A stretch of DNA of 59,067 nucleotides, taken from Verrucomicrobiota bacterium (GTDB taxonomy: Bacteria; Verrucomicrobiota; Verrucomicrobiia; Chthoniobacterales; UBA10450). Below are positions 6,575-26,318 of this stretch, piece after piece. Position 1 is the first letter of the stretch; every line of letters begins with the position of its first letter. Position numbers and translations under genes: made by a program. Location: NCBI GenBank assembly GCA_003219175.1, contig QHPU01000046.1:311-59377 (forward strand). The letters are read 5' to 3'. The notes under the pieces were generated by a model. The model was not told the origin of the DNA. It did no database searches and was given only the letters and a program-made list of their open reading frames with translations.

Positions 6575-6666
6575 GATCAGACGGTTGAAACTGAATCTCC
6601 TTGATGCCCCGGCTTGGCCCAGAAGATGCACTTGCAAAAGGCATTCACCCACGGAGCCTTGCGCGC

Positions 6667-7971
6667 ATGAAATATTCCGGCCCTGCTATTCTTACACGGT
6701 TACCCATTGCGTTGGCGTCGCTCGCCCTGTGTAGCGGATGCTCGTTTACGCCTCTTATTAACAACAAGCTCCCCGGTAACCGCGCTTTCATTGATTACTG
6801 GCCGTCAGACGCGAACAGCAAGCGATTACGGCTGGCGGTAAAAGATAACATCGACATGAAGGGAGTGATCACGACCGCCGGTTCGCAAATTTTCCAGCAA
6901 ACGCACAAGCCTGCGCGCGCCGACGCGGCATGCCTGGCAATCGCCCGCAAACGTAACGTGCAAATCGTTGGCAAAACGAACCTGACCGAATTCGCGGTTT
7001 CGCCCTCCGGTATCAATGAATATTTCGGGACGCCCGAGAATCCGTTGCGGCGTAATCTCATTCCCGGCGGATCCTCGTCGGGGAACGCGGTCGCAATCGC
7101 GAGCGGAATGGCAGATGTGGCTTTCGGGACCGACACAGCCGGTTCCATCCGCGTGCCTGCCGCGTGCTGTGGCATCGTCGGTTTAAAGACGACGTATGGT
7201 TTGATTTCAATCGAACGAGTTTACCCGATCGAGCCTGAACACCTCGACACCATCGGTCCAATGGCAAAGGATATCGCTTCCACGGTTCAGGGGATGGACC
7301 TGCTTCAAAGTGGATTCGCCGCCAAGTATGTTGCCGCTAAGACGGCGAAGCCATCCGGTCGGAGCATCCGGGTGGGCCGCCTCAAACTCAAAGGGACTGA
7401 TCCCGATATCGATGTGGCAATTGATGAGGCAATCGCTAAAGCGGGCTTCCAAGTCGTGCCATTAGACGACAGCTTCCGCGACAAATGGGAAAGCGCGAAG
7501 AAAGACGGGAATACCCTTGCGTCGGCTGGAGCATGGATCAGCGACCAACGACTTCAATTCGCGCTGGGAGTGACGACTCGAACCAAGGCGGTAATCCGGC
7601 TGGGGCAGGTCACCTACACCACAACCTACCGCGCTGCGGTTGCGAGACAGAAAGCGTGGCAGCAAACCCTGAGCAACGTTTTCGAGAATGTGGATGTCAT
7701 TGCTGTGCCGACACTTCAAAAAATGCCGCCAGGACTTCCACTGCTCAATTTGAGAATAGGCATACTCGAGGCGCTAGTCCTTGAGATGCAAAATACGGTC
7801 GCGGTAAGTTTCGCGGGCAATCCAGCCCTGGCAATGCCAATTCCGGTTCGTAACAAGAGGGTTCCGGCCACGAGCCTCCAACTTGTCGGGCCAAGACTGA
7901 GAGAGGCGGAACTGCTTAATGTGGGAAGACAGGTAGAAGAAGCGGTGAAGGATCGTGAGGAGAGGGAATGA
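6667..7971 (+). CDS. Amidase signature family enzyme, predicted lipoprotein
   Basis: A 434-residue amidase. The start at 6667 gives MKYSGPAILTRLPIALASL followed by a lipobox ending CSGC, so it is probably exported and lipid-anchored. The Ser-cisSer-Lys triad can be placed as Lys59 (in VKDNID), Ser136 (first Ser of GGSSSGN) and Ser160 (GSIRVPA). The Lys-Ser and Ser-Ser spacings match other family members. The enzymes hydrolyse amide bonds of varied substrates; export suggests a peptide, peptidoglycan or environmental amide target, which is inference. It is a relative of GatA but lacks the context of a GatCAB operon. Confidence 0.88.
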   Translation: MKYSGPAILTRLPIALASLALCSGCSFTPLINNKLPGNRAFIDYWPSDANSKRLRLAVKDNIDMKGVITTAGSQIFQQTHKPARADAACLAIARKRNVQIVGKTNLTEFAVSPSGINEYFGTPENPLRRNLIPGGSSSGNAVAIASGMADVAFGTDTAGSIRVPAACCGIVGLKTTYGLISIERVYPIEPEHLDTIGPMAKDIASTVQGMDLLQSGFAAKYVAAKTAKPSGRSIRVGRLKLKGTDPDIDVAIDEAIAKAGFQVVPLDDSFRDKWESAKKDGNTLASAGAWISDQRLQFALGVTTRTKAVIRLGQVTYTTTYRAAVARQKAWQQTLSNVFENVDVIAVPTLQKMPPGLPLLNLRIGILEALVLEMQNTVAVSFAGNPALAMPIPVRNKRVPATSLQLVGPRLREAELLNVGRQVEEAVKDREERE

Positions 7972-8962: not shown

Positions 8963-9733
8963 ATGAAACCTCTTATTCACCGCCTTTTCGCGGTCGCTTC
9001 AACAGCCCTGCTGCTAGTCGACGTCAGTTCCGGCGCTGAATCAGTCGATGACCGCGTCGCGAGGGGTAGGGCCTTCGAGCAAAAGTTCCAGGCTAACGAT
9101 GCGCTGACGCAATATCTCGCCGCGGAAAAATTGGAGCCAAAGAATCCGGAGCTTCTTGTCCGGATTGCCCGGCAATATAGATGGCTGATGACGGACGCAT
9201 CGGCGAAGGAAGAAAAACTGCGGCTGGGCCACCTCGCGCTGGACTATTCCATGCGCGCCGCAGCGTGTGGACCTAAGGACTGCGACGCTCAACTTGCGAC
9301 GGCCATTACGCTCGGAAAAATGCTGCCCTATTTACCAACAAAAGAACAGGTATCCGCATCTCCGCGAATCAAGGAATCGGTGGACAAAGCGCTTGAGCTT
9401 GATCCCAGTGACGACACAGCATGGCATATTTTGGGCAGATGGCATCGCGTGCTAGCCGACGTTAATATAGTGAAGCGCACGATGGCCGGATTGTTGTACG
9501 GCAACCTGCCGAAGGGCTCCATCAACGAAGCCGAGCGCGCCATGCAGAAGGCCATCGAGCTGAATCCGAATCGCCTGATGCATTACATTGAACTTGGACG
9601 GATTTACGCGCAGATGGGAAGGACCGATGATGCGCGCCGATTCATCAACAAAGGGCTGGCGATGCCGGACAGCGAAAAGGATGATCCCGAAACGAAGGAA
9701 CGCGGGCGGGAAACGCTCGCGAAACTCCACTAG
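8963..9733 (+). CDS. Secreted TPR protein, RMDN-like
   Basis: A 256-residue protein with an N-terminal signal peptide (MKPLIHRLFAVASTALLLVD). Helical repeats follow, including DTAWHILGRWHRVLADVN, GLLYGNLPKGSINEAERAMQ and a final clear TPR MHYIELGRIYAQMGRTDDAR. The W-x-x-LGRW and L-G-NLP-x-GS features resemble bacterial relatives of the regulator-of-microtubule-dynamics (RMDN) family. It is probably a periplasmic scaffold for protein contacts. Its stop codon overlaps the stop of the convergent asparagine synthase gene on the shared CTAG at 9730-9733. Confidence 0.75.
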   Translation: MKPLIHRLFAVASTALLLVDVSSGAESVDDRVARGRAFEQKFQANDALTQYLAAEKLEPKNPELLVRIARQYRWLMTDASAKEEKLRLGHLALDYSMRAAACGPKDCDAQLATAITLGKMLPYLPTKEQVSASPRIKESVDKALELDPSDDTAWHILGRWHRVLADVNIVKRTMAGLLYGNLPKGSINEAERAMQKAIELNPNRLMHYIELGRIYAQMGRTDDARRFINKGLAMPDSEKDDPETKERGRETLAKLH

Positions 9734-11754
9734 GTTTTCGCCAGTTCGCCGACCTGGGTAGGCCTCGCTTCGGCGGCTGCTGGCGTTTGGATAGCTGACC
9801 ACTCCGGCAGATCGGCAAGACCGCCTCCCATGAAAAGATGGTGCCACAGTTGCGTTGCTACGACCGCCATCAGGCCCATCTCAACCGAGAACCGCGGCAG
9901 GGAACCGGCGCGCATTTTACGAAAATCGTTACGCCATCGAGCAACGGCGGATAAGTCGAAATAGCCGGTTTTGCGCAGCGATTCCTCACTCAAAAGCTGC
10001 GCGATAAACGGCGGTTCCGGTTGCATGTGAAAGCTGTCCAGCGGCGCGCGGAAGATAACTTTGTGCCGACGTGCCACGGATTTTGGCACCCATCGTTCGG
10101 CCAACAGACGCAGCAGGTGTTTGTCCCGAAACCCGCGAAGGCGCCAGCGTGGATGCAGCTTGGCCAGGAAATCGAACACGTCCTCGTCCAGAAAGGGGTA
10201 TCGCACCTCGACCGAAGAATGCATGGCGACGCGATCGCCTTTGGCCTGGAGTAGATGCCCGGCCAACAGAACGCGCGCCGCAATCCAGACTCCGCGATGG
10301 AGCGGATCCCATCGCTTCGCGCGTTCCACAGGAAAATCCAGTTCCGTCCACGGATTCGTCTGCGCGAGAGTTTCGCGCATCGGCTCACTATAAAAGCGCA
10401 GCTTGGAAATCGCGAGCAATCCGTAGGCATCAATCCAGGCATTGGGACCGCCGACCGAATTCTCGACTTGCTGTCGCCACGCATCGGAAAAATGCGGTAC
10501 CTTGTTCACGCTTAGGTAGGCGTTTCGCGCAATATTGCTGAAACCGACCCCGGGGATTAGGTCGAGAAAACCCATGAGCTTAGCCGCCTTGTACCACGGA
10601 TAGCCGACGAGCCATTCGTCTGCACCTTCGCCGGTCAGCACTACTTTTTGTCCACAGCTGTGGACTCGCCCGGAAAGCTGAAGCAATGCGGCGCAGGCCG
10701 TGTCGATTACCGGCGCTTCCGCGGCGGTAATCAACCGGGGATAGGTCGCCAGCGCGTCTTCGTCGCGGAAGTCCTGCACGATCGGCGGCTTGGCGCCGAT
10801 GTGTCGCGCTGAAAGACTGGCCGCATCCAGTTCGTCCAGCTCCGGCTCGTGCACCCGGACGGTGTAGGTGTTGATCGCCGGACCCTTCAAGTGGCAGGCC
10901 AGCGCCACGATCATACTCGAGTCGACACCGCCCGAAAGATAAGCACCGACTGGAACATCAGCTCGTAGTCGCTCTTCCACCGCTTGCAGCAATACCTTTT
11001 CGAAGTCGTCAACGAGTCGCTTCGGATTTTCGCCCCACTCCTCCACACCCTGATCGGGAAAATTCATTTCCCAAAAAGCTCGCTCCTGCACCACGGCACT
11101 AGCACCGTTTCCGTTTCCGGGAGAGATGCTCAGGAAATGTCCGGGTCGGAGAAGCTGGACGCCTTCAAAACACGTTCGCGGTCCAGGCACAGCGGAGAAA
11201 GTGAAGACATGATCAATGCCGCGACGATCTGCCCGCACCGAGACCATACCCGAAGCAAGAAGTCCTTTGATCTCTGACGCGAACAGGAGCCAGTCCCCTT
11301 GCCGCGTCCAAAAAAGTGGTGCGATGCCGAAGCGGTCGCGTCCAAGCTGAAGCTGGCGTTTCCGCTCATCCCATAATGCGATGGCAAACTGGCCTCGCAG
11401 CTTCTCCCACATTTGCTCGCGATGATCTTCCCACAAATGCGGAATGATTTCGGTGTCGCAGTGAGTGACGAGCCGGTGTCCGCGCTCCCTCAGTTCTACC
11501 CGGCGCTCAACGTAATCGAAGAGCTCGCCATTGAAGACAACGAAGACGTTGCGATCTTCATTCCCCATCGGCTGCTGGCCATCGGCTAGACCGACGATGC
11601 TTAGCCGCCGCGACGCCAAAGCGAGTCCGGGCCGCACCAGAAAACCCTCTTCGTCCGGCCCGCGATGCAACAGAGCGCGGGCCATTCGCTGAATGCAACC
11701 TTCCGGCACAAGGCGCTCTCCGGCCAGATCGATGATGCCCGCGATGCCGCACAT
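9730..11754 (-). CDS. asnB: Glutamine-hydrolysing asparagine synthase-type amidotransferase
   Basis: A 674-residue AsnB family enzyme. The start at 11754 leaves MCGIAG, so Cys2 becomes the N-terminal nucleophile of the glutaminase domain; the ATG at 11760 would bury it. The glutaminase half carries LLHRGPDEEG, FNGELFDY and RDRFGIAPLF. The synthetase half has the ATP-pyrophosphatase loop YLSGGVDSSMIVA and GEGADEWLVGYPWYK. It transfers glutamine ammonia to an adenylated carboxylate, aspartate in the classic case. The form of about 670 residues, with an extra C-terminal helical part, is common in biosynthetic and exopolysaccharide clusters. Lying divergent to the polyketide synthase with only 289 bp between, it may amidate that product instead. 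Confidence 0.88.
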   Translation of the reverse strand: MCGIAGIIDLAGERLVPEGCIQRMARALLHRGPDEEGFLVRPGLALASRRLSIVGLADGQQPMGNEDRNVFVVFNGELFDYVERRVELRERGHRLVTHCDTEIIPHLWEDHREQMWEKLRGQFAIALWDERKRQLQLGRDRFGIAPLFWTRQGDWLLFASEIKGLLASGMVSVRADRRGIDHVFTFSAVPGPRTCFEGVQLLRPGHFLSISPGNGNGASAVVQERAFWEMNFPDQGVEEWGENPKRLVDDFEKVLLQAVEERLRADVPVGAYLSGGVDSSMIVALACHLKGPAINTYTVRVHEPELDELDAASLSARHIGAKPPIVQDFRDEDALATYPRLITAAEAPVIDTACAALLQLSGRVHSCGQKVVLTGEGADEWLVGYPWYKAAKLMGFLDLIPGVGFSNIARNAYLSVNKVPHFSDAWRQQVENSVGGPNAWIDAYGLLAISKLRFYSEPMRETLAQTNPWTELDFPVERAKRWDPLHRGVWIAARVLLAGHLLQAKGDRVAMHSSVEVRYPFLDEDVFDFLAKLHPRWRLRGFRDKHLLRLLAERWVPKSVARRHKVIFRAPLDSFHMQPEPPFIAQLLSEESLRKTGYFDLSAVARWRNDFRKMRAGSLPRFSVEMGLMAVVATQLWHHLFMGGGLADLPEWSAIQTPAAAEARPTQVGELAKT

Positions 11755-12043: not shown

Positions 12044-15000
12044 ATGCCAAAAGACCGCATAGCCATTATCGGAACCGGATGCCGTTTCCCCGGCGGTGCC
12101 AATGACGCAGAGTCCTTTTGGAAATTATTGATCGAAGGCAGGGACGCAGTAACCGATGCACCGGCGGACCGGTGGAACGTGGAGCGGTATTATGATCCCG
12201 AGCCGGGAATCGCCGGAAAGACTTTCGCCAAACGCGGCGGATTCCTGGAACAAATCGATCAATTTGACCCGCAGTTTTTTGGCATCTCGCCGCGCGAGGC
12301 GCCTTACGTCGACCCGCAGCATCGCTTGCTCCTGGAAACTTCTTGGGAAGCCATTGAGGACGCCGGAGTCGTCCTCGATTTTGAAAAAGGCAGCGATGTT
12401 GCCGTCTTTGTTGGCATTTCGCATAACGACTACCAAGGGATTCAGAGCACCGCTTTCGACCACTTCGGTATTGCACCCCACACGCCTACCGGGAGCGCGC
12501 ACTCAATCGCCGCGAATCGAATTTCCTACTGTCTAAATCTGCGAGGTCCGAGCGTCGCGATGGACACGGCATGTTCGTCGGCTCTCACTGCGATCCACGC
12601 CGCGTGCGAGCACATTTGGGCCGGACGCGGCGACACCGCACTGGCGGGCGGCGTGACCGTGATAATCACACCGGGCGGATTCATCGGTTTTTCGCAGGCG
12701 TCAATGCTCTCGCCCGATGGCCGATGCGCCGCGTTCGATGCAACGGCAAATGGTTTCGTGCGTGGCGAAGGCGCCGGCATGGTGCTTCTTAAGCGCCTTT
12801 CCCACGCAATTGCAGATGGCGATCCAATTCAGGGAGTAATTCTCGGCACGTCGATCAATCAGGACGGGCATACAAACGGTATCTTCCTACCCAGCGCGGA
12901 AGCACAAACCCGGCTGGTAGAAGAAGCGTGCAAAGATGCTGGCGTATTGCCGCACCAGATTGCATTCGTCGAGGCGCACGGCACCGGTACGGCGGTCGGT
13001 GACCCAATCGAAGCTCATGCTCTGGCGGAAGCTCTGTGCAGGAACCGCTCCGATCCCCTCCCCATCGGCTCGGTAAAAACCAACGTCGGACATCTCGAGA
13101 CCGCCGCCGGCGTCGCGGGACTTTTGAAAGCGATGCTTGTACTCCAGCACCGCAAAATTCCACCGAGCCTCCATTTCAACACGCCGAATCCACACATCGA
13201 TTTCGAGAAATTGAAGTTGCGTGTTCCGACGGCGGTCGAGCCTTTGCCGGAAATGAATGGTGAATGCTTGGCTGGCGTAAACTCGTTTGGTTTCGGCGGC
13301 GCCAATGCGCACGTTATTCTGACGGAACCGCCTCCGCTCCCGCATTTCGCCCATGCAGAATTCTGGCCTGAGCGCGCCTGGCCGGTGATGCTTTCTGCCC
13401 GCTCCGAGGATGCGCTCCGTGGCTACGCGATGAAACTGGCGGCATGGCTCACGGAACGGCTGAACCTCAACGGCGATTCGCCGCTCCTGCCTGATCTTAC
13501 TTACACACTCGGCGCGCGGCGCAATCATCACCCGCATCGCCTGACGCTGGTCGCCCAATCGATAGCCGATCTGATTCAGGAACTCGACGCTTTCGCGATC
13601 AAACAGGATAGCGTAAGGGTGCGAAATTCGTTCACACCGCGTCCTGAGTCCGCTCCGCGCGTTGCGTTCGTCATGAGCGGACAGGGCCCGCAGTGGTGGG
13701 CCATGGGGCGCGAGTTGATGCAACACGAACCGGTTTTCCGGCGGGTCATCGAACAGTGTGATGGCGCGATGCGTGGCATCACGAACTTCTCTCTACTCGA
13801 AGAGCTCACTCGTTCCGAGGAAACCTCGCAGATGCACCGCACCGAAGTTGCGCAGCCGGCCATCTTCGCGATGCAGATCGGGCTGGCCGAGCTTTGGAAA
13901 TCGTGGGGCGTGCAGCCGGCGGCGGTCGCGGGCCATAGCGTAAGTGAAATTGCCGCAGCCTGCGTGGCCGGTTTGTTTTCCTTGGAGCAAGGCGCGCGCA
14001 TTACCGCTCTCCGCGCACAATTTATGGAGAGCTGTGCCCGGGGCGAAGGAAAGATGCTCGCCGTCGGTCTCGGCGAAGAAGAAGCGCAGGCGTTGATCGA
14101 CAAACATGATCGCACCGTTTCAATCGCGGCATTTAACGGCCCCCGCTCGCTTACCCTGGCCGGTCCGCGCCATTCGATCGAAGCGATCTTTGCCGAACTC
14201 GAGCCGCAAGGCGTGTTTGCGCGCATGGTGCGCGTCGATCACCCATTTCATCATTCGATGATGCAACCGGCCTCAGAAGCCCTCGAAAACGCGCTGGCCG
14301 ATCTCGCGCCGCAATCTGAGACTGTCCCGTTGTTCAGCACGGTGACCGGCAATCGCCTCGCCGGTGAGGCCGGCGATGCGGCGCACTGGGGCCGCGGCGT
14401 TCGGCAACCGGTGCAGTTTGCGCCGGCGATAAACGCGATTGCTGATTTCGGCGTGGATATTTGGCTAGAGCTCGGCGCTCACCCCGCTCTGGCTCATTCA
14501 ATCCAGGAGTGTCTTGCTGGCCGCGGCGGTGCAAACCCGATTGTAATTTCGTCGGTTCGCCGGGAGCGCGAACACGGATCGTTGCTCGAAGCGGCAATGG
14601 ATCTACATCGGGCGGGAGTGCCGTTCAACTTCAAGGCGATGACCCCATCGCGTCGTTTGCTCTCGCTCCCGGCTTACTCCTGGGATCGGAACCGCTGGTG
14701 GAACGAGGCTCCCGCCTGGCGCGAAGGCCGACTGGCACCAGGCGGCCGAGGCCTGCTCGATTTTCGCTTGCCGTGCGCGAAGCCTACCTGGTCAGCCCGT
14801 CTAGACAGCCGTCACATGGCGTTTCTCAAAGATCACCGGGTCGAGAACCGTGTTATTTTTCCTGCCGCGGGATTTGTTGATCTCGTAATCGAGGCCGCCA
14901 CGCAGCTCTTCGAGGGCCGGCCTTTCGTGGTCGAGGACCTTGAAATTCGCAAACCACTCATCTTGCCGGAATTGGGCACCGGGATTCAGCTCGAGATTTC

Positions 15001-18000
15001 GTACGAGCCTAACGAGCGCACATTCATGATCCAGAGTCGGCTGGACCAGGGAACATCCTGGTCGTTGCATGTCGTCGGCTCGATGCGCGCCGAACGGACC
15101 GAGTCGAGGTTCGCCGGATCAAGTTTCGAAAGTGAAATCCAGCCGGTTATCTCCAAGCTCAAGCCCATCGATATCGAAGCGTTTTATCGTTATATGAACG
15201 ATCTGGGACTCGGGTATGGTGACACATTTCGCTCTGTTCGCGAGCTTTCCGCCGCAAATGGCGAATCGTCCGGGCGGGTGGCGCTTTCTGAATCGATTGC
15301 GCCGAGAGCCGGTGAGTATCCGTTGCATCCCGTACTGCTCGATGGTGCGTTACACGTGTTTTCCGCCGGTCGTTCAACGGTCGAAGCGCGCGGCTCGCAA
15401 CTTAAATTGCCAGTCCGATTTGGCCGGATCCTGTTTCTCCACTCTCCCGGAGCCTCGGCACGGGTGCGCGCCAGCGTGGTCCAATGCACGGATGAGTTCG
15501 TCGAGGGGCGCATCGCTCTTTATGACGAATCCGGCAAACCGTGTGTTCTAGTGGACGGATTCCGCGCCATCAGTGTCGCCGCGGTGCGCCGGGGTACGCC
15601 CGGCGGAGTCCGCGATGTTCTCTATCATGTGGATTGGCAGCGCACACCAAACGAATCACGCGCGGGGACGTTGGAACCGCTGCCGTTGAACCGTCTGCGC
15701 GACGCTGCTCGAGGCGCGCTCGATGATGTGCTCGCAATGCGCGGCCGCTCCCGGCTAGAAAGTGCGATTGCCGCTCAGGACGATCTCGCTGCTGTCCTGC
15801 TCTGCGCAGGCCTCCGCGAAATGGGAGTTACGATCGGCGCTGATTTCACCGCCGATTCACTGCGTGTCGCCATGTCGATGCGACCAGTTTTCGAACAGTT
15901 GATGTTGAAACTTCAAAAGCGCGGTCTGGTCGAATCAAGTGAATCCGGTTATCGACCAAAGCTGGCGTTCGCAACTGCCGCTGAATCCGCTAACCAGGCG
16001 CAGCAACAGTTCATTACGGATCACCCCGGTCACCTCCCTGAAGCGCAGCTGGTGGCCGGAAATTGCGCTGAGCTCGGTCCGATTCTGCGCGGCGAGAAGG
16101 ACGCGGTGCAGGTACTGTTCGCTGGCGCTGGAGCGGAATTGCTCGACCAATTTTACGGCGACGGTTTGCTGACAAGTCACTGGCTTGCAGCTATCAGCGC
16201 TGCTGTGCAGGAAGCGGCCCGTGTGCTTCCGGAGGGCCGCGGCTTGAGGATCCTCGAAGTCGGCGCCGGTACTGGCGGCCTCAGCGCGCAAGTGCTCCCG
16301 CCGCTGGAGCGCGGCTTGCACTCCTACACATTCACCGACGTCTCGGCTGCTTTCTTCTCGGGTGCCCATCAGAAGCTCGCAAACTTCCCGGAAGTTGAAA
16401 CCAGGATCTTTGATCTTGAAAAATCCGCTGCCGAACAGGGCTTCGAGATCGGCTCGTTCGATTTTATCATCGGCACCAACGTACTTCACGCCGTAGCCAA
16501 CATTCGCGCTTCCCTGCGTAACCTGTACGATCTGCTCGCTCCGGGCGGTTCGCTGGTTTTCATGGACGTGGCCACGCCTCAGTTGTGGACGGAAACGGTT
16601 TTCGGTCTAACCAGCGGTTGGTGGCGCTTTAGCGATCGGGATCTGCGCCCAGTGCATCCACTACTTGGACGTTCGCAATGGGAAACGGTGCTTCGCGAAA
16701 CCGGTTTCAGCGAGACTAGTTCGTTGCCAGGATTAATGGGGCCGGACGGCGAAGGCCAGATCACCATTCTCGCGCGCAAAGCGTGGCAGGCTCCGGCCGC
16801 CCCCGAACCTGTAGTGGAATCTCCGCCGGAAAAATCATTTCTTATTTTTGCCGACCGAGAAGGTATTGGTTCCTCTTTAGCCGAACGCCTGCGCACGACG
16901 GGTATTCGTTGCCGAATTGCCTTCCGTGGGACCTCGTTCGCAGCGAGCGAACTAGACACCTTCACGCTAAGAGCCGAAGCGCCGGAAGATTGGCAGCAAC
17001 TTTTCGCGGCGTGCGCGGGCGAAGCGGCGCCGGAGCGGATCATCTATCTTTGGAACCTTGATACACGAATTGACGATGATGCAGCGATTGGCACCGACGC
17101 GATGCTCCACCTCGCCCAGTGCCTCGATAGCACCTGGCCCACGACCAATCTGCGAATCGACTCCGTTACGCGAGGGGCGGAAGCCGTCGGCCGAGATTCC
17201 AGCCCAACCGTACTCGCGCAGGCCCCCGCCGTCGGGCTGATGCGCGTCATTCTGAACGAATATCCGAACTATGCTTGTCGCGGGATTGATTTGCCGCCGA
17301 CGCCGTCCGCAGCTGATGCAAACTTGCTTTGGATGGAACTGCTGCGCGCCGAATCGGAGCGCGAAGTCGCCTTCCGCGGCGAGGCGCGATATGTCCAGCG
17401 ACTCGAACGCGGACGTCCGCGCCGTGAGCAAACGTTTGATCGCGCTGTCCCGCTGCGACTCGAATCACGTGAGCGCGGCCAGCTCGACACCCTGAGCTTC
17501 GCGCCTTTCAGGCAGCCGTCGTGCGGGCCGGGCGAAGTAATCATCGACGTGAAGGCGGCGGGCATGAATTTCCGCGATGTACTCAAAGCTCTCGCGCTTT
17601 ATCCCGGCGAAGCGCCCGATGCGCGCGTCTTTGGAGACGAAGTTGGCGGTATCGTCATTGCCGTCGGATCCGACGTTACGCACGTGAGGCCGGGCGATCG
17701 GGTCTTTGGTCTGGCCGTGTTCGGGTTGTCGACGCAGACGATCGCGCGCGGCGGCGACGTACGCCGAATTCCTAACGATCTCTCCTTTGAGGAAGCGGCC
17801 ACGATTCCGGTTGTGTTCATGACCTCCTGGCATGCGCTGAAAAATGTGGCGCGACTAAGGAAGGGTGAACGGGTGCTCATACACGCCGGTGCCGGGGGCG
17901 TCGGCATGGCTGCGATCCAGATCGCGCATCATCTGGGCGCCGAAGTCATCGCCAGCGCCGGTAGCCCGGCCAAGCGAACGTTGCTCCAAACGCTCGGCGT

Positions 18001-19705
18001 AAAACACGTAATCGACTCACGGCGCGGTGACTTTGCCGAAGCTGTGATGGAACTTACCGATCGTCGCGGTGTGGATGTAGTGCTCAACGCCCTCGCCGGC
18101 GAAGCAATTCCAATGGGCCTGGGATGCCTCGGTGAGTTCGGTCGCTTTGTCGAAATCGGCAAACGCGACATTTACCAAAACTCCCGTATTCCGCTCCGGC
18201 CGTTGCGGCGCAACGCATCGTTTCACGTTGTCGCGATGGACGCCGTCTTCGCATGTAACGAAACGCTTACGAGAAAGATGCTCGCGGAGATCTCTGACCT
18301 CGTCGAGCAGCGCGCTCTCTGTCCGCTGCCGTTCCGCGCATTTCCAGCAAACAACATCAGTTCAGCCTTTCGGCTCATGGCGGGCGGGAAGCACATCGGC
18401 AAGGTCGTCGTTTCGCTCCCGGAAACATTTGTCCCGCGGCGCGGGGAGCCCATGGCATCGAAGTTCGAAATCAGGTCGGATGGATGCTATCTCATTACCG
18501 GCGCGTTTGGTGGCTTCGGAAAAGTCATTGCCAATTGGCTGGTCCAGTGCGGAGCGCGGCATCTGGTGCTTTCCAGCCGGAATGGCGCATCCACTTCGGA
18601 AGCTGAGGCGTTCGTTAACAGTCTCCATGATCGAAAAGTCACAGTTCAAATCGTAAAAGCCGACGCTGGCTCGCCTGACGACATCGCGCGCCTATTGGCT
18701 GAAATCGGCAGCAACCGTCAGCCCCTTCGCGGAATATTTCATCTCGCCATGTTCATCGACGACGCACCGCTCGCTGCGCTTAACCGCGAGCGAATGGCAA
18801 GCGTAATCGGCCCGAAGGCACTTGGGGCATGGCTCCTCCACGAAGGGACCCGGCACATTGCCCTCGATTGTTTCGTTATGTTTTCATCGATTTCGTCAAT
18901 CTTCGGCAATCCTGCGCAGGGCAATTACGCAGCGGCCAATGCGTTCCTTGATTCGCTCGCACATCACCGTCATGCGCTCGGGCTTCCCGCCTTAACGATA
19001 AACTGGGGTGTGCTGGGCGGAGAAGGCTATGTCGCGCGAAATGAACGCGTAGCCGAGTTTCTCGCCAAACAAGGTATTAGTGAACTTTCGCCCGGCGAAG
19101 TGCTGTCGATTGTTGAGTCCTCACTTCGTGCGGGCAGCGCTCAGGTCGCTGCCATTCGAGTGGATTGGGCGAAATGGAGAACGTTCTTCCGAGGCATGCA
19201 AGGGAGCCCGCTCCTCGAGCGCATCTTCGCGGCGGTCGAGGGCCAGGACAGCGCCGGTGTCACAAGCGATTGGCGAAATAAGATCGAGTCCGCCGCCCTA
19301 GCGGAAAAGGAAACCGTAATCGCCCACGCTGTACGCGAAGTTGTCGGGTCTGTCCTCCGAGTAAAACCGGACACACTACGTGACGATCAACCGCTCACCG
19401 ACCTCGGCCTCGACTCTTTGATGGGCGTTGAAATCGAGAACTCGCTGGAAGCAGCAATCGGCGTCGCTCTGCCGCCTACGAGCTTGATGCGCGCCCGGAC
19501 GATTGGCCAAATCGCAACTTTAATCGCAGGCCACGTTGGCGGCACCGCGCAAAGTGCGACGTCGCCGCCGACTCCACCAAGACCGACAGAACAGTCCGTC
19601 CCATCTTCAATTGAGGTTGATCTCGATGCACTTTCGATTGAACAGATCGGCCGGCTACTCGGCGGCGATGAAAATCCTGTACTCGAGGCAACCCCGCATG
19701 TCTGA
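12044..19705 (+). CDS. Highly reducing type I polyketide synthase (KS-AT-DH-MT-ER-KR-ACP)
   Basis: A 2553-residue, single-module synthase. The KS covers about 1-430 with catalytic Cys177 (DTACSSA), His312 (EAHGTG) and His350 (KTNVGH). The AT covers about 540-840 with Ser632 in GHSVSE and HPFH at 733-736. The DH has His931 and Asp1100. A C-methyltransferase has its SAM loop ILEVGAGTGG at 1403-1412 and NVLHAV downstream. An enoylreductase spans about 1820-2130, with GMNFRDVL at 1840 and AGAGGVGMAAIQ near 1950. The ketoreductase has TGAFGGFG near 2152 and Tyr2295 in NYAAAN. The ACP has Ser2458 in GLDSLMG. All active residues I could check are present. This order is that of fungal LovF-like and related bacterial enzymes that build reduced, often methyl-branched chains. 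There is no thioesterase, so another protein must release the chain. The 8-bp overlap with the condensation-enzyme gene indicates coupling. Confidence 0.95.
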   Translation: MPKDRIAIIGTGCRFPGGANDAESFWKLLIEGRDAVTDAPADRWNVERYYDPEPGIAGKTFAKRGGFLEQIDQFDPQFFGISPREAPYVDPQHRLLLETSWEAIEDAGVVLDFEKGSDVAVFVGISHNDYQGIQSTAFDHFGIAPHTPTGSAHSIAANRISYCLNLRGPSVAMDTACSSALTAIHAACEHIWAGRGDTALAGGVTVIITPGGFIGFSQASMLSPDGRCAAFDATANGFVRGEGAGMVLLKRLSHAIADGDPIQGVILGTSINQDGHTNGIFLPSAEAQTRLVEEACKDAGVLPHQIAFVEAHGTGTAVGDPIEAHALAEALCRNRSDPLPIGSVKTNVGHLETAAGVAGLLKAMLVLQHRKIPPSLHFNTPNPHIDFEKLKLRVPTAVEPLPEMNGECLAGVNSFGFGGANAHVILTEPPPLPHFAHAEFWPERAWPVMLSARSEDALRGYAMKLAAWLTERLNLNGDSPLLPDLTYTLGARRNHHPHRLTLVAQSIADLIQELDAFAIKQDSVRVRNSFTPRPESAPRVAFVMSGQGPQWWAMGRELMQHEPVFRRVIEQCDGAMRGITNFSLLEELTRSEETSQMHRTEVAQPAIFAMQIGLAELWKSWGVQPAAVAGHSVSEIAAACVAGLFSLEQGARITALRAQFMESCARGEGKMLAVGLGEEEAQALIDKHDRTVSIAAFNGPRSLTLAGPRHSIEAIFAELEPQGVFARMVRVDHPFHHSMMQPASEALENALADLAPQSETVPLFSTVTGNRLAGEAGDAAHWGRGVRQPVQFAPAINAIADFGVDIWLELGAHPALAHSIQECLAGRGGANPIVISSVRREREHGSLLEAAMDLHRAGVPFNFKAMTPSRRLLSLPAYSWDRNRWWNEAPAWREGRLAPGGRGLLDFRLPCAKPTWSARLDSRHMAFLKDHRVENRVIFPAAGFVDLVIEAATQLFEGRPFVVEDLEIRKPLILPELGTGIQLEISYEPNERTFMIQSRLDQGTSWSLHVVGSMRAERTESRFAGSSFESEIQPVISKLKPIDIEAFYRYMNDLGLGYGDTFRSVRELSAANGESSGRVALSESIAPRAGEYPLHPVLLDGALHVFSAGRSTVEARGSQLKLPVRFGRILFLHSPGASARVRASVVQCTDEFVEGRIALYDESGKPCVLVDGFRAISVAAVRRGTPGGVRDVLYHVDWQRTPNESRAGTLEPLPLNRLRDAARGALDDVLAMRGRSRLESAIAAQDDLAAVLLCAGLREMGVTIGADFTADSLRVAMSMRPVFEQLMLKLQKRGLVESSESGYRPKLAFATAAESANQAQQQFITDHPGHLPEAQLVAGNCAELGPILRGEKDAVQVLFAGAGAELLDQFYGDGLLTSHWLAAISAAVQEAARVLPEGRGLRILEVGAGTGGLSAQVLPPLERGLHSYTFTDVSAAFFSGAHQKLANFPEVETRIFDLEKSAAEQGFEIGSFDFIIGTNVLHAVANIRASLRNLYDLLAPGGSLVFMDVATPQLWTETVFGLTSGWWRFSDRDLRPVHPLLGRSQWETVLRETGFSETSSLPGLMGPDGEGQITILARKAWQAPAAPEPVVESPPEKSFLIFADREGIGSSLAERLRTTGIRCRIAFRGTSFAASELDTFTLRAEAPEDWQQLFAACAGEAAPERIIYLWNLDTRIDDDAAIGTDAMLHLAQCLDSTWPTTNLRIDSVTRGAEAVGRDSSPTVLAQAPAVGLMRVILNEYPNYACRGIDLPPTPSAADANLLWMELLRAESEREVAFRGEARYVQRLERGRPRREQTFDRAVPLRLESRERGQLDTLSFAPFRQPSCGPGEVIIDVKAAGMNFRDVLKALALYPGEAPDARVFGDEVGGIVIAVGSDVTHVRPGDRVFGLAVFGLSTQTIARGGDVRRIPNDLSFEEAATIPVVFMTSWHALKNVARLRKGERVLIHAGAGGVGMAAIQIAHHLGAEVIASAGSPAKRTLLQTLGVKHVIDSRRGDFAEAVMELTDRRGVDVVLNALAGEAIPMGLGCLGEFGRFVEIGKRDIYQNSRIPLRPLRRNASFHVVAMDAVFACNETLTRKMLAEISDLVEQRALCPLPFRAFPANNISSAFRLMAGGKHIGKVVVSLPETFVPRRGEPMASKFEIRSDGCYLITGAFGGFGKVIANWLVQCGARHLVLSSRNGASTSEAEAFVNSLHDRKVTVQIVKADAGSPDDIARLLAEIGSNRQPLRGIFHLAMFIDDAPLAALNRERMASVIGPKALGAWLLHEGTRHIALDCFVMFSSISSIFGNPAQGNYAAANAFLDSLAHHRHALGLPALTINWGVLGGEGYVARNERVAEFLAKQGISELSPGEVLSIVESSLRAGSAQVAAIRVDWAKWRTFFRGMQGSPLLERIFAAVEGQDSAGVTSDWRNKIESAALAEKETVIAHAVREVVGSVLRVKPDTLRDDQPLTDLGLDSLMGVEIENSLEAAIGVALPPTSLMRARTIGQIATLIAGHVGGTAQSATSPPTPPRPTEQSVPSSIEVDLDALSIEQIGRLLGGDENPVLEATPHV

Positions 19706-21041
19706 CGCCAAACGCGCTCGTTTCAAACAATGGCTTGAGAGCGGTGAGGCCCATCTGCATCCGCTAACTTTACCACAGCGCGAACTGTGGGAAACCTCTG
19801 CGGCTCCGCCAGCCGACGTGTCGAACCACATCTGTTGCGTTATCAACGTTCGCGGGCTGATTTCTCCCGAGGATTGCGTCGCTTCCCTCCAGCGGGTCGT
19901 GAACCGGCAGGAAGTGCTGCGGTTGTCGTTTTTACCCGGAAAAAATGGACCCGTTCAGCTCATTCGCAGTCGCAGCGAGCCGGTGATGCGATTCCGTGAC
20001 GTTCCATCGAATACGCCGCCCGAAAAGATCGAAGAGCTTGCGCTCCAAACCTTTTACCAGCCATTCGATTTGGTTCAGGGACCTCTTTATCGAGTGGAAA
20101 TAATCCGCCGCGCGCCTGACGACCAGATAATGGTTTTCGCGATTCATCATGCCATCGCCGATGGTTGGACGTTAGGCATTTTTGTCCAAGACTTATCTGC
20201 CGCTTATGTCCTGCAACGTACCGGCGCGAGGAACGGATTACCTCCGGTGCTCACCTCATACTCGGCATGGGGCGCCACGGAGCGCAGCACCTGGCAAGCT
20301 GCCGAGCTGGAGCCACGCATCGCTTTCTGGAAATCGCGCATAACGGGAATCCGCCCGCTCTGGACCACACCCCACAATTCCGACATCGTCCTGATGCCTC
20401 AACGCTTGGTGTCTGAGTTGCCGGCTGAAACAACAACCGCGGTTCGCGAACTGGCCCGGTGCAATGGTGCCACACTGTTTAGTACGCTACTGGCGCTATT
20501 TCAGATCGCGCTTTCGCGGTGGACGGGCGAGAACGACATCGTTGTCGGGACGCCGGTGGCAAACCGAATCCGCCAGGATGTCCGCGAGACGATGGGATAT
20601 TTTTCCGGCATCGTTCCGTTGCGCGGCCAGGTGGAGCGGGATCGCCCGTTTACTGAACACGTGCGAATCGTTCACCAGACCACGGTCGATTCGTTTGCCA
20701 ACGCGATGCCGTTCGCGGAACTTGTCCAGGCCGTTGGCGAACATCCGTCGCCGACGCGAAACCCCATCTTCCAAGTGCGCTTTGCTTTGCAAAATCATCC
20801 TATCCCCGATGTCGAAATTCGCGGACTGTCACTGAAGCTGCGGATGCGGTCGACTGGTACTCCGCGGTTTGACCTTGGGTGTGAAATCACCGAACGAGGC
20901 GACACGTTCGAGGTAGTCTGGTTGTTCCGGGAGAACCTTTTTTCCGGACCCGAAATAGAAGAACTAGGTCGGCTGTTCCAATCCGTAATAGAAAATAGTT
21001 CCCGGGTGCCCGAGAGGCGGACTGCTGCCCTAACGAGTTAA
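19698..21041 (+). CDS. Stand-alone condensation-domain acyltransferase
   Basis: A 447-residue protein whose ATG at 19698 lies inside the last codons of the synthase gene (overlap to 19705). It has the condensation-domain catalytic motif HHAIADG at residues 150-156. Later family segments include GTPVANRIRQDVRETMGYFS and RNPIFQVRFALQNHP, and an opening LTLPQRELWE. No adenylation or carrier domain is attached. Such free-standing enzymes (PapA5-like acyltransferases, VibH-like) join a carrier-bound acyl chain to an amine or alcohol. Next to a synthase without a thioesterase, it most likely releases the polyketide by ester or amide formation. The acceptor is unknown. Confidence 0.88.
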   Translation: MSDAKRARFKQWLESGEAHLHPLTLPQRELWETSAAPPADVSNHICCVINVRGLISPEDCVASLQRVVNRQEVLRLSFLPGKNGPVQLIRSRSEPVMRFRDVPSNTPPEKIEELALQTFYQPFDLVQGPLYRVEIIRRAPDDQIMVFAIHHAIADGWTLGIFVQDLSAAYVLQRTGARNGLPPVLTSYSAWGATERSTWQAAELEPRIAFWKSRITGIRPLWTTPHNSDIVLMPQRLVSELPAETTTAVRELARCNGATLFSTLLALFQIALSRWTGENDIVVGTPVANRIRQDVRETMGYFSGIVPLRGQVERDRPFTEHVRIVHQTTVDSFANAMPFAELVQAVGEHPSPTRNPIFQVRFALQNHPIPDVEIRGLSLKLRMRSTGTPRFDLGCEITERGDTFEVVWLFRENLFSGPEIEELGRLFQSVIENSSRVPERRTAALTS

Positions 21042-21045
21042 AACG

Positions 21046-22002
21046 ATGAATATCGCAACAACTGCCGAAACTGTTTCCGAAATGCACGACGAGCACGACG
21101 TTCGCAGTGTTGCCTTCCAAACTCTGGTGATCTCAATCGGTCTTACCGAGGCTGCGCTTTGGGCCGCGGTCTGGCTGGGTTGGATCTGGCTCGCTGTGCC
21201 GCTCGTCCTGGTGGCGGCGCATTTCATGCATGGCATGTTGATTGGTTTTCACGAAGCTTCGCATGGTCTGCTCCGGAAAAGTCGGCGACTGAATGAATTC
21301 GACGGCGTGATCATTGGCATGTTCAGCTTTCTGCCTTTCAGCCTTTATCGCGTGGTGCATCAAACGCATCACATCCATCTCGCCACCGAGCGCGATACCG
21401 AGCTCTGGCCATTTGTTCTTCCGAAAGTTCCTCGCTCGGCACGATGTTGTGCGGCTCTGCTCGAACTTACGGTCGGCTTGTTTTACTCGCCGTTCATTTT
21501 TCTGCGCACTTTTGTCGGTCGCGCCCCCGTAGTCCGAAGCCGCAAGGTCAGGCGGCGAATTTGGGCCGAGTTAGCCCTCAGTGTGGTCGTTTGGACTGCC
21601 CTCATCGCGGCAGTCGCCATCTTGGGCGTGTGGAAATATTTCCTTTGGATGTATTTGGGGCCGGCGATCATTGCGGCAAATCTCCAGAGCTGGCGCAAAT
21701 ATATCGAACATGTCGGCCTAACCGGCGATACGGTAAACAGTTCCACCCGGAGCATTGTGCCGAAAAGCTGGTTCGGACGCGTCTTTGCCTACACTCTGCT
21801 CCACGAGCCTTACCATGGTGTGCACCATCAAAATGCCGCTCTGCCACATCGAGTGCTGCCTCAGTTTACATCCGTGCTTACTCCGAAAACGCCGGGCGAT
21901 GTTGCCCCATTCATGAGTTATCGGCAGGCGTTGCCAGACGTGATTCGCAACCTCGCGAATCCGCGAGTTGGAGCACAATGGTGCGACCCTACACGGAACT
22001 GA
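21046..22002 (+). CDS. Membrane fatty-acid desaturase family protein
   Basis: A 318-residue integral membrane di-iron enzyme. The three histidine clusters are visible: GFHEASHG near residue 68, HQTHHIHL near 106 and HEPYHGVHH near 253, separated by hydrophobic segments. The family introduces double bonds or hydroxyl groups into acyl chains at the membrane. It starts 4 bp after the condensation-enzyme gene, so it belongs to the same operon and probably acts on the polyketide or its acyl partner. A hydroxylase or ketolase activity is also possible in this superfamily. Confidence 0.88.
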   Translation: MNIATTAETVSEMHDEHDVRSVAFQTLVISIGLTEAALWAAVWLGWIWLAVPLVLVAAHFMHGMLIGFHEASHGLLRKSRRLNEFDGVIIGMFSFLPFSLYRVVHQTHHIHLATERDTELWPFVLPKVPRSARCCAALLELTVGLFYSPFIFLRTFVGRAPVVRSRKVRRRIWAELALSVVVWTALIAAVAILGVWKYFLWMYLGPAIIAANLQSWRKYIEHVGLTGDTVNSSTRSIVPKSWFGRVFAYTLLHEPYHGVHHQNAALPHRVLPQFTSVLTPKTPGDVAPFMSYRQALPDVIRNLANPRVGAQWCDPTRN

Positions 22003-22112
22003 CAGCCGATTGCGTCAGCAACGGCGTATTGGTCGAAAGGGAACCAGCATTAAGCGGGAACCGGTAGCTTTCGAAGAGCCGCTCCACCGACCGGCGTTTT
22101 TCCATTTTCAAG

Positions 22113-22849
<737 letters not shown>

Positions 22850-22853
<4 letters not shown>

Positions 22854-23965
22854 CCTTTCTCGATGTCATCATCCGCGGCCTCAAGCGACGGCCACTCCGC
22901 ACAGGCTTAACATTGTTAGGCATTTCGGTCGGCATCGCCGCGGTTGTTGCGTTGATTGGATTGTCTCGAGGTTTGGTCACCAGTTGGACAGCGGGAATGA
23001 GGCAACGTGGGACCGAGATAGTCGTTTCCAACTTTCGGGGTTCTCTCACCCCGAAGCCGTTTCCTGCATTTACCCGGGACCGGATCGCCAATCTCCCCGG
23101 TGTCGCGGCAACCTGTACGATTTTGGTTGATTTGATGGGCATCGAAAACGCCGAGTTGATGATCGTGTCGGGACGCGAATGGGGCTGCTTCGCCTGGGAA
23201 AATCTCAAGCTCGTCTCCGGGCGGATGCCTAACGATCAGAATGAACATGCGGTTGTCCTGGGCACCAACGCCGCGGACATCTTAAAAAAGAAAATCGGCG
23301 ACACGGTGCAGATCGAGACTGAGGAACTCACCGTCGTAGGCATTGCTAACGGTGGGGCATTTGTCGAAAACGGCTCGGTGATTCTTCCGCTCCCCCTGCT
23401 GCAACAGATCACCGGCAATCACGATCAAATCAGCGCCATCGATGTGCGGGTCACTCCCGGCATGAATGATGCCGGGATTCGGCACCTGTGCGACGAGATG
23501 AACAAGCTCATTCCGGAAGGGCATGCCGAGCCGGCCGGCGAACATATTGCGAGCAGTGAGGGCTATCGGGTGATCAATGCTATGAGCTGGGGCACGTCGC
23601 TGCTGGCGATACTGGTCGGTGTGCTTGGCGTCACGAACACCATGCTCATGAGTGTTTTTGAGCGAAAGCAGGAGATCGCTGTTTTGCTTGCCCTGGGATG
23701 GAGACCCAGCCGGATCGTGCGCATGATTTTGTGGGAGTCGGCCTTACTGGGATTCCTCGGCGGCATTATCGGTGTGCTCCTGGGCATCATCGGTGTCCAA
23801 TTGCTGAAAATGGCGCCTGCTCTGCGCGGCATGCTCGAACCGGACTTACGGACCAACCTGATGCTTGAGGCCATTGCTATCGCGGTGTTTGTCGGCGTTC
23901 TAAGCGGACTTTATCCAGCGTGGCGGAGCTCACGAGTAGCACCCAGCCTGGCCTTACACGGATGA
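22850..23965 (+). CDS. ABC transporter permease, FtsX/MacB type
   Basis: A 371-residue permease starting MTFLDVIIRGLKRRPLRTG at 22850, overlapping the ATPase stop by 4 bp. It has one N-terminal membrane helix, a periplasmic domain of about 200 residues (MacB_PCD-like), and three C-terminal helices. These include SLLAILVGVLGVTNTMLMSV and the ALGWRPSRIVRM coupling loop. It would pair as a homodimer with the ATPase above. No membrane-fusion partner is encoded nearby, which fits a LolCDE-like lipid-extracting role better than a drug pump. It is followed directly by the LolA-like gene. Confidence 0.9.
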
Positions 23966-24786
23966 ACAGTGGGAAAACGAGCTCGTCGAAACTATTTATG
24001 ACCCTTGACTTCACAGGCCGCTGGTTCGCCACCGTGAGCGTGGTTCTTATTGCGGTGCCTATGTTTGCCGTGGCGGAAGAGTCGGCGTCTGATCTCGCAG
24101 CCGCTCTGCGCGCAAAAGAAGAGGGTTCAACATTTGTCCGGGTGCGAATGCAGATCGGGAGCGGGGAAAATCAAATACTTCAACTTCAAATTAAATCCCG
24201 CCAGTCGAATACCACCAGTGATATCGTGTATCAGGTTCTGTTTCCGAAAGAGCGTAAAGGCGAAGCCGTTTTACTTCATCGATCGGGCGAAAAATTCAGT
24301 GGAACCACGTTTGCTCCTCCGAATACCGTTAGGCCAATCGTGTCGGGACAAATGAATCAAGCGCTTTTCGGCAGCGATCTTTCCTACGAAGACATAATCG
24401 ATAATCCCTTCCGGTGGCCTCAACAGGCAATTGTCGGAACCGAAGCGATCGATAATATTCAGTGTCAGATCCTCGAATCGAAACCTGGAAAAGGCCACAG
24501 CTCCTCGTATTCCAGCGTGAAAACCTGGGTAGATCCTCGCCGGTTCGTTCCGCTGCGAATCGAGAAATATGACAGCTCGGGCAAAGTTCTGCGCCGGATC
24601 AACATCACCCGTGTTTTGCTCGATGGAAACGACTCCCTGCCTGCTGATCTCAAAGTTTACGGGCCGCGCGGCACCGTCACCGAGATAACCGGGTCACGAA
24701 TCAAGCGAGGCTTGACTTACGCGAACACTGAATTCACGCCAGAAGGTCTAAAGCAGCTCAGCGCGCCGCCTGGTTCTCCTCAATAG
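23962..24786 (+). CDS. LolA-like outer-membrane lipoprotein-sorting protein
   Basis: A 274-residue exported protein. The start at 23962 overlaps the permease stop (ATGA); the ATG at 23998 (MTLDFTGRWFATVSVVLIAV, a signal peptide) is an alternative. The mature part has the features of the LolA-like/DUF4292-type family: LQLQIKSRQSNTTSDIVYQ, PNTVRPIVSGQMNQALFGSD and KTWVDPRRFVPLRIEKYD. These proteins form half-barrels that bind lipid groups in the periplasm. Coupled to a LolCDE-like ABC pair, it could carry the polyketide lipid, or a lipoprotein bearing it, across the periplasm. That is inference from the context. Confidence 0.8.
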   Translation: MNSGKTSSSKLFMTLDFTGRWFATVSVVLIAVPMFAVAEESASDLAAALRAKEEGSTFVRVRMQIGSGENQILQLQIKSRQSNTTSDIVYQVLFPKERKGEAVLLHRSGEKFSGTTFAPPNTVRPIVSGQMNQALFGSDLSYEDIIDNPFRWPQQAIVGTEAIDNIQCQILESKPGKGHSSSYSSVKTWVDPRRFVPLRIEKYDSSGKVLRRINITRVLLDGNDSLPADLKVYGPRGTVTEITGSRIKRGLTYANTEFTPEGLKQLSAPPGSPQ

Positions 24787-26008: not shown

Positions 26009-26318
26009 GTTCGATCGAAGAATGATCGTGAATACGATCTCCGTTGGTCGCAACTAACGAAAACAAGGAATGGCGGGTTTTCTCGATTTTTCCGGGAAGC
26101 TCGCGTGCGTTGTTCGGCGCCCTCGCTGAACGCGAGAGGAAATTCGCGAAGGCGAGGCGTGTGCGCTCCGCAGCCCAGACGGTCTCTAACGCAACACTAG
26201 ATTCGACTACGACATCCGCTGTAGGCGTGGTCGTTGGCCGCGGCTCCTCTACAGCAATAGCGACTGGCACAACGATTGTGCGCCGCATCGGCTTCAACAA
26301 AAGCGAACAGATAATCCC
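26009..26318. other. Gap between HpnL-like and PAP2 genes
   Basis: About 310 bp without a convincing gene. On the minus strand the frame of the PAP2 gene stays open after its TGA for this whole stretch, but the predicted residues (Thr, Arg and Ala-rich) look like chance. I see no RNA gene or repeat. Confidence 0.4.

What the first reader, a model, noticed from the sequence alone, without database searches (positions are those of the whole stretch)
12044..24786. Compact polyketide-lipid cluster: LovF-order synthase, free condensation enzyme, desaturase and LolCDE/LolA-like export
Seen: six same-strand genes with overlaps of 4-8 bp or gaps of 4-110 bp. The synthase has all reductive domains plus a methyltransferase and no thioesterase; a stand-alone HHxxxDG enzyme is coupled to it by an 8-bp overlap. 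Then come a three-histidine-box desaturase, an ABC pair of LolD/MacB type and a LolA-like protein. Known: mycobacterial MAS plus PapA5 and fungal LovF plus LovD use a separate acyltransferase to release a reduced, branched chain. Inference: the cluster makes a methyl-branched, unsaturated polyketide, transfers it to an alcohol or amine, and moves the lipid through the periplasm with a Lol-like relay. I do not know of a described cluster with exactly this composition.
Basis: partly seen in the sequence, partly recalled or inferred. Interest (0 to 1): 0.8.

Follow-up and report, generated by a model that had tools for sequence, protein, structure and literature searches.

The report
Conserved polyketide-lipid synthesis and export cluster
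A block of about nine genes, shared by many uncultured soil and freshwater Verrucomicrobiota and largely absent from their close relatives, appears to build a methyl-branched fatty chain, join it to another molecule and carry it towards the outer membrane; no paper I could find describes it, and its product is unknown.

Summary
Six same-strand genes encode a KS-AT-DH-cMT-ER-KR-ACP synthase with no thioesterase, a free condensation (C) protein, a membrane desaturase/hydroxylase, a LolD-type ATPase, a MacB-type permease and a LolA-fold protein. Junctions of -8, +4, +110, -4 and -4 bp fit the description.

Comparative genomics makes it a real unit. About 53 further Verrucomicrobiota loci carry the C protein (47-80% identity); other phyla reach at most 32%. 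The synthase lies immediately upstream in 33 of 34 testable loci, and the four downstream genes follow in order in 31 of 39. The unit extends upstream of the reported start: a divergent AsnB-type amidotransferase, a periplasmic TPR protein and an amidase recur in 16, 17 and 13 of 20 regions. Among 213 genomes of the order, C and AsnB co-occur (p about 1e-20).

Corrections: the C protein is NRPS-type, not PapA5 or LovD; the permease is MacB-like, and housekeeping LolC/E lies elsewhere; LovF resemblance is domain order only.

New: the C-plus-desaturase pair was exchanged by recombination between related clusters.

Best reading: an iterative synthase makes a reduced, alpha-methylated chain, the C protein releases it onto a free amine or alcohol, and the ABC/LolA pair exports it. 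The product is unproven.

The parts
5737..6537 (+). hypothetical protein (family F20), loosely recurrent near the block
   Evidence: in 2 of 20 fetched regions at 75% identity and 2 other loci; no Pfam match
6601..7971 (+). amidase-signature hydrolase with a lipobox-like N-terminus (exact start uncertain); conserved flank
   Evidence: PF01425 1e-63; in 13 of 20 fetched regions; N-terminus LALCSGC
8963..9733 (+). TPR protein with a signal-peptide-like N-terminus; conserved flank
   Evidence: TPR Pfam hits; in 17 of 20 regions; hydrophobic N-terminus in 9 of 10
9730..11754 (-). AsnB-type glutamine-dependent amidotransferase, divergent from the PKS
   Evidence: TIGR01536 390.7 bits, over its cut-off of 267.1; co-occurs with the C gene in 22 genomes, p 1e-20; a second Asn synthetase lies elsewhere in the genome
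12044..19705 (+). type I PKS, KS-AT-DH-cMT-ER-KR-ACP, no thioesterase
   Evidence: Pfam; all active sites conserved in 37 orthologs; nearest solved full-length relative MAS, nearest cMT CurJ, KS bacterial cis-AT type
19698..21041 (+). stand-alone condensation (C) protein, HHAIADGW motif, 8-bp overlap with the PKS
   Evidence: PF00668 3.7e-63; HH and DG invariant in 51 orthologs; predicted fold pLDDT 89 matches NRPS C domains; the only PF00668 found in the genome
21046..22002 (+). membrane di-iron desaturase/hydroxylase with three His boxes
   Evidence: PF00487 3e-30; His-box residues invariant in 45 orthologs
22113..22853 (+). LolD/MacB-type ABC ATPase
   Evidence: LolD model 246 bits, below its cut-off of 308; ABC motifs conserved in 40 orthologs
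22850..23965 (+). MacB-type FtsX permease (single subunit)
   Evidence: MacB_PCD and FtsX Pfam; LolCE model only 40 bits against 362
23962..24786 (+). LolA-fold periplasmic carrier (PF17131) with a signal-peptide-like N-terminus
   Evidence: PF17131 1.6e-21; predicted fold pLDDT 87 matches DUF1329/LolA-superfamily structures including P. gingivalis LolA3; hydrophobic N-terminus in 31 of 32 orthologs, no lipobox
19490..21890 (.). recombinant segment: the last ~200 bp of the PKS gene, the C gene and most of the desaturase gene, with a history different from both flanks
   Evidence: four-sequence site patterns WL/WM/WG: PKS 3' end 108/12/13, C 23/109/15, desaturase 30/49/19, LolD 63/1/1, FtsX 79/2/5

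Best explanation
This is a dedicated biosynthesis-and-export cluster for a cell-envelope lipid, found so far only in Verrucomicrobiota. Proposed steps: (1) the single-module PKS works iteratively, extends with malonyl units, methylates some alpha carbons from SAM and can fully reduce the chain; (2) having no thioesterase, it hands the ACP-bound chain to the free C protein encoded next to it, which joins it to a small free amine or alcohol; (3) the membrane di-iron enzyme desaturates or hydroxylates the chain, before or after release; (4) the LolD/MacB-type ABC pair lifts the product from the inner membrane, and the LolA-fold protein shields it across the periplasm to the outer membrane. An AsnB-type amidotransferase and an amidase belong to most versions, which favours an amide-bearing product. 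Shown here: gene content, order, conservation, intact active-site motifs, predicted folds, co-occurrence and exchange of the C-desaturase pair. Inferred: iteration, chain length, acceptor, export substrate and final location.
For: Domain content and absence of a thioesterase. Active sites conserved in 37 PKS orthologs, including KS Cys-His-His, AT Ser, DH His and Asp, the cMT SAM motif and catalytic His, ER and KR nucleotide motifs, and ACP Ser. The AT motif HPFH resembles the malonyl signature (HAFH), not methylmalonyl (YASH), which fits the presence of a cMT (motif knowledge is my own). The cMT is nearest to active CurJ, whose acidic residue aligns with D/E here. The C gene is coupled to the PKS in 33 of 34 loci, with -77 to +33 bp between them. 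C is the only PF00668 and the PKS the only multidomain KS protein found in the genome, and no PCP or A domain is encoded in the block, so the acceptor is probably free. Four downstream genes in order in 31 of 39 loci. Housekeeping LolC/E lies elsewhere at 329 bits. LolA-fold model. LolA-like gene co-occurs with C, p 6e-21. AsnB, TPR and amidase in 16, 17 and 13 of 20 regions. Precedents: DevBCA exports heterocyst glycolipids whose aglycone is PKS-made (PMC8064123); LolA2/LolB2 lie in the flexirubin operon and are proposed to serve it (PMC11885536).
Against: No product is known. The C, AsnB and amidase could act on different molecules. Some loci keep PKS-C but lack the neighbouring ABC/LolA genes (L034, L041, L078, L066) and in one an RND pump follows instead (L066), so the export part is not indispensable or is replaceable. 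AsnB is missing from several families that have the rest. The only PPTase found is AcpS-type. PF00487 also holds hydroxylases, and the best, weak NCBIfam hit is a hydroxylase. Permeases of this fold are common: 45 FtsX domains in this genome.
Confidence: 0.58

Rival explanations
1. A soluble or secreted secondary metabolite (for example an antibiotic-like polyketide amide) rather than an envelope lipid: the MacB-type ABC pair is an efflux and self-protection pump and the LolA-like protein is incidental.
For: Patchy distribution, 28 of 213 genomes in the order and only this one of 11 genomes of the genus, is typical of secondary metabolites; MacB-family permeases export antibiotics; L066 has an RND efflux pair straight after the C gene; C-desaturase exchange looks like product diversification.
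Against: No MacA-type adaptor or TolC gene was found in the conserved block, while a LolA-fold carrier is; amidase, TPR and LolA-like proteins carry export-like N-termini, which suggests envelope handling.
Confidence: 0.25
2. The ABC pair and LolA-like protein are a lipoprotein-sorting set that merely sits next to a PKS-C-desaturase cluster.
For: LolD-like ATPase at 246 bits and LolA superfamily fold.
Against: Housekeeping LolC/E is elsewhere; the genes occur in a minority of genomes and co-occur with the C gene at p 6e-21; they keep the same position behind PKS-C in 31 of 39 loci; the permease is not LolC/E by model.
Confidence: 0.07
3. The C protein works as a PapA5- or LovD-like transesterase that esterifies the chain onto a diol or polyketide alcohol.
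For: HHxxxDG superfamily; free-standing C enzymes such as SgcC5 form esters (own knowledge), and SgcC5 structures are among the fold matches (ranks 38 and 42).
Against: Nearest sequences and folds are NRPS C domains, mostly amide-forming (Txo2, TycC, LgrA, DhbF); PapA5 is not among the listed hits; AsnB and amidase neighbours point to nitrogen chemistry.
Confidence: 0.25

Closest known systems
Mycobacterial MAS/PapA5/MmpL7/LppX system for phthiocerol dimycocerosates
   Same: Single-module reducing type I PKS making a methyl-branched chain; release by a stand-alone HHxxxDG enzyme; a LolA/LppX-fold carrier (2byo is a distant fold match); best solved full-length PKS match is MAS.
   Different: Here methyls probably come from SAM via a cMT, not methylmalonyl; the C protein is NRPS-type, not PapA; exporter is an ABC pair, not MmpL; carrier is the larger PF17131/LolA3-like type with no lipobox.
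Fungal HR-PKS LovF/LovD (and LovB)
   Same: Domain order KS-AT-DH-cMT-ER-KR-ACP and release in trans.
   Different: KS is bacterial cis-AT type; the cMT is nearest to bacterial CurJ; LovD is a beta-lactamase-fold acyltransferase (own knowledge).
Cyanobacterial heterocyst glycolipid system HglE and DevBCA
   Same: PKS-made lipid aglycone exported by a MacB-class ABC transporter (PMC8064123); the window ATPase matches the DevA family at 199.5 bits, below its cut-off of 295.8.
   Different: Here there is no membrane-fusion DevB homologue in the block but a LolA-fold carrier; a cMT and a C protein are added; no glycosyltransferase found in the block.
Flexirubin LolA2/LolB2 and P. gingivalis LolA3
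   Same: Extra LolA-fold proteins; LolA2/LolB2 lie inside a lipid-pigment operon (PMC11885536); fold match to LolA3.
   Different: Not a flexirubin/aryl-polyene cluster; paired here with its own ABC transporter; no LolB identified.
LolCDE-LolA-LolB lipoprotein sorting
   Same: LolD-type ATPase, FtsX-fold permease, LolA-fold carrier.
   Different: One MacB-like permease, patchy distribution, and a separate LolC/E in the same genome.

Membership tests
Type I PKS, reducing, C-methylating, single module | KS, AT, DH, cMT, ER, KR and ACP with catalytic residues | tested here: met
Type I PKS, reducing, C-methylating, single module | works iteratively | not testable with these tools
   one module only; iteration inferred from architecture
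MAS/PapA5 system | PapA-type acyltransferase | tested here: not met
   PapA5 model does not report the window protein and gives 19 bits against a cut-off of 396 on an ortholog; nearest folds are NRPS C domains
MAS/PapA5 system | methylmalonyl-specific AT, no cMT | tested here: not met
   cMT present; AT HPFH motif
NRPS-type condensation enzymes (PF00668) | C fold with HHxxxDG | tested here: met
NRPS-type condensation enzymes (PF00668) | subtype (LCL, starter, other) | tested here: inconclusive
   nearest solved chains include LCL-type domains; no reference tree could be built
LolCDE lipoprotein exporter | LolC/LolE-type permease | tested here: not met
   40 bits against 362.45; another locus in the genome scores 329
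MacB-type ABC transporter | MacB periplasmic core plus FtsX domain with a LolD/MacB ATPase | tested here: met
   ATPase matches the MacB model at 217 bits
MacAB-TolC/DevBCA tripartite pump | membrane-fusion protein encoded with the ABC pair | tested here: not met
   none among recurrent families at the window or in related loci; an HlyD-type protein only in L066, with an RND pump
LolA superfamily (PF17131) | LolA-like half-barrel fold and export signal | tested here: met
Membrane fatty-acid desaturases (PF00487) | three conserved His boxes | tested here: met
Membrane fatty-acid desaturases (PF00487) | desaturates rather than hydroxylates | not testable with these tools
   family includes hydroxylases; weak best NCBIfam hit is a hydroxylase

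The most novel reading that the evidence does not exclude
A phylum-specific class of envelope lipids: a C-methylated polyketide chain amidated by a free NRPS-type C enzyme, delivered to the outer membrane by a dedicated MacB-type transporter with a LolA-fold carrier (a private Lol-like lipid relay), and diversified between species by swapping the C-desaturase cassette while the chain-building and export parts stay fixed.
Probability: 0.3. Interest if true: 0.8.

Novelty: new variant of a known kind. Interest (0 to 1): 0.57.

Why it matters
It defines a testable, widely shared biosynthetic unit in a phylum whose envelope lipids are poorly known, and it is present in Verrucomicrobium isolates BvORR106 and BvORR034, so it can be tested in the laboratory. 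It would give a clear case of a LolA-fold carrier serving a specialised lipid instead of lipoproteins, something proposed for flexirubin but untested in the paper read (PMC11885536), and a partner ABC transporter for such a carrier. The C-desaturase exchange gives a natural experiment on which genes set product identity.

Tried and rejected
PapA/LovD kinship of the C protein: rejected for PapA5 on sequence, model and fold; LovD excluded on own knowledge of its fold. Housekeeping Lol: rejected. AsnB as the housekeeping asparagine synthetase: unlikely, because it tracks the cluster and a second Asn synthetase is present. Chance gene neighbours: rejected by synteny. Fungal origin of the PKS: no support. 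Literature searches combining Verrucomicrobia, polyketide, condensation, desaturase and lipid terms found no description; PMC10308959 reports monomodular Verrucomicrobia PKSs, but with PTM-like KS-AT-DH-KR-ACP-C-A-PCP-TE architecture. No solved relative of the desaturase was found by sequence. A scan centred on another phylum was not possible. F6, F11, F12, F16 and F18 look like antisense or out-of-frame ORFs over the real genes and were ignored. Not done: a C-domain reference tree, the KS tree, and an antiSMASH/MIBiG comparison (no reference sequences available).

Full report
Observation. The six genes exist at the stated places and strand. The junctions are -8, +4, +110, -4 and -4 bp, with ATGA overlaps at LolD/FtsX and FtsX/LolA-like. 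Pfam gives KS, AT, DH, methyltransferase, ER, KR and one ACP in the 2553-residue synthase and no thioesterase; PF00668 for the C protein; PF00487; ABC_tran; MacB_PCD plus FtsX; and PF17131.

Is it a unit? A scan of 84,980 bacterial and archaeal species for the C protein gave about 53 loci with 47-80% identity, all labelled Verrucomicrobiota or its subgroups, and then a gap to 32% or less in other phyla. The scan uses short peptide patterns, so very distant relatives could be missed. In these loci the synthase lies immediately upstream of C in 33 of 34 cases with enough upstream sequence, and desaturase-LolD-FtsX-LolA follow in that order in 31 of 39 with enough downstream sequence. Two loci put LolA before LolD (L059, L082); L034, L041, L078 and L066 lack the nearby export genes, wholly or largely.

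The unit is larger than reported. Regions of up to 20 kb from 20 related genomes (some short or lacking the upstream side) show AsnB (divergent in all 16 that have it), a TPR protein (17) and an amidase (13) upstream of the PKS. Across 213 genomes of the order, C occurs in 28, the AsnB in 26, both in 22 (Fisher p 1e-20); the genomes with AsnB but no C are fragmented MAGs, and most of those with C but no AsnB belong to families f86 and f3, which have a different upstream gene set. The LolA-like gene also tracks C (24 shared, p 6e-21). The genomes are related, so these p-values overstate independence. Distribution is patchy: of 11 genomes of the genus only this one has the cluster.

Function of the parts. 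All catalytic motifs of the PKS are conserved in 37 full-length orthologs: DTACSS, HGTGT, NVGH or NLGH, GHSVG or GHSVS, DH His and Asp, the cMT LExGxGTG motif and NVLHA histidine, ER and KR nucleotide motifs, KR Tyr and Asn, and ACP DSL. The cMT is nearest to the CurJ C-methyltransferase, and where CurJ has a Glu the family has Asp (34) or Glu (3). A His-Glu dyad is described for such domains (PMC9821293), but I did not prove that this position is the dyad partner. The C protein's HH, A, D, G and W of HHxxADGW are invariant in 51 orthologs; its predicted structure (pLDDT 89) matches NRPS C domains best. Desaturase His boxes are invariant in 45 orthologs. The genome has one C domain, one multidomain KS protein and one AcpS-type PPTase at about 90% completeness.

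Export. The permease is MacB-like, and LolC/E is encoded elsewhere. The LolA-like protein has a signal-like N-terminus in 31 of 32 orthologs and no lipobox; its model (pLDDT 87) matches a DUF1329 protein, 3bk5, P. gingivalis LolA3 and 3buu better than classical LolA. LolA3 has no known function and pairs only very weakly with LolB in P. gingivalis (PMC13103446). LolA2/LolB2 lie in the flexirubin operon and are proposed, not shown, to serve it (PMC11885536). DevBCA is a precedent for a MacB-class ABC exporter of a PKS-derived lipid (PMC8064123).

New finding. Against locus L051 the window is about 88-95% identical in the PKS 3' end and 91-100% in most of LolD, FtsX and LolA-like, but about 63-82% across C and most of the desaturase. 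Four-sequence site patterns (window, L051, L032, G514) switch: window+L051 is favoured 108/12/13 in the PKS end, 63/1/1 in LolD and 79/2/5 in FtsX, but window+L032 with L051+G514 is favoured 23/109/15 in C, and more weakly 30/49/19 in the desaturase. This is recombination of the C-desaturase pair between related clusters, unless one contig is chimeric. A second pair, L036/L075, shows the same dip over C (63-81% against mostly 88-94% around it), for which faster divergence is not excluded. I infer that C and desaturase set a variable part of the product.

Interpretation. The best-supported mechanism is iterative synthesis of a reduced, alpha-methylated chain, release by the C protein onto a free acceptor, oxidation by the di-iron enzyme and export by the ABC/LolA pair. 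AsnB and amidase suggest nitrogen chemistry, so I favour an amide over an ester, with low confidence. Chain length, acceptor, place of the double bond or hydroxyl, and export substrate are not shown.

Novelty. Every part belongs to a known family; the combination and its conservation across Verrucomicrobiota were not found described in the papers searched, which cover only open-licence PMC texts. I could not compare with MIBiG or BiG-FAM. I therefore call it a new variant of a known kind.

Noticed in passing
window 19490-21890: The C-desaturase segment has a different history from its flanks (recombination or cassette exchange with related clusters).
   Followed up: yes
L066:11361-15853: An HlyD-type adaptor and an AcrB-type RND pump follow the C gene directly, where other loci have desaturase and ABC/LolA genes.
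   Followed up: partly
L050:12255-13856, L059:17644-19428, L064, L072, L077, L079, L082: A secreted-looking alpha/beta hydrolase recurs beside or near the cluster in seven loci; possibly acts on the lipid in the envelope.
   Followed up: partly
L072:15123-16238 and 8 other loci: A methyltransferase-like protein (weak Methyltransf_20 match) recurs near the cluster, mostly in loci where no AsnB was seen.
   Followed up: partly
window 8025-8645 (-): A small exported-looking protein of no Pfam family; related genes sit between desaturase and transporter genes in L059, L076 and L082.
   Followed up: partly
window 25004-26053 (-): A lysylphosphatidylglycerol-synthase-type membrane protein (PF03706) lies just downstream on the other strand; not shown to be part of the unit.
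   Followed up: partly
G000 contig C137: A run of about nine large proteins (810-870 aa), most with two FtsX domains (ADOP-like permeases), on one contig of the same genome.
   Followed up: no
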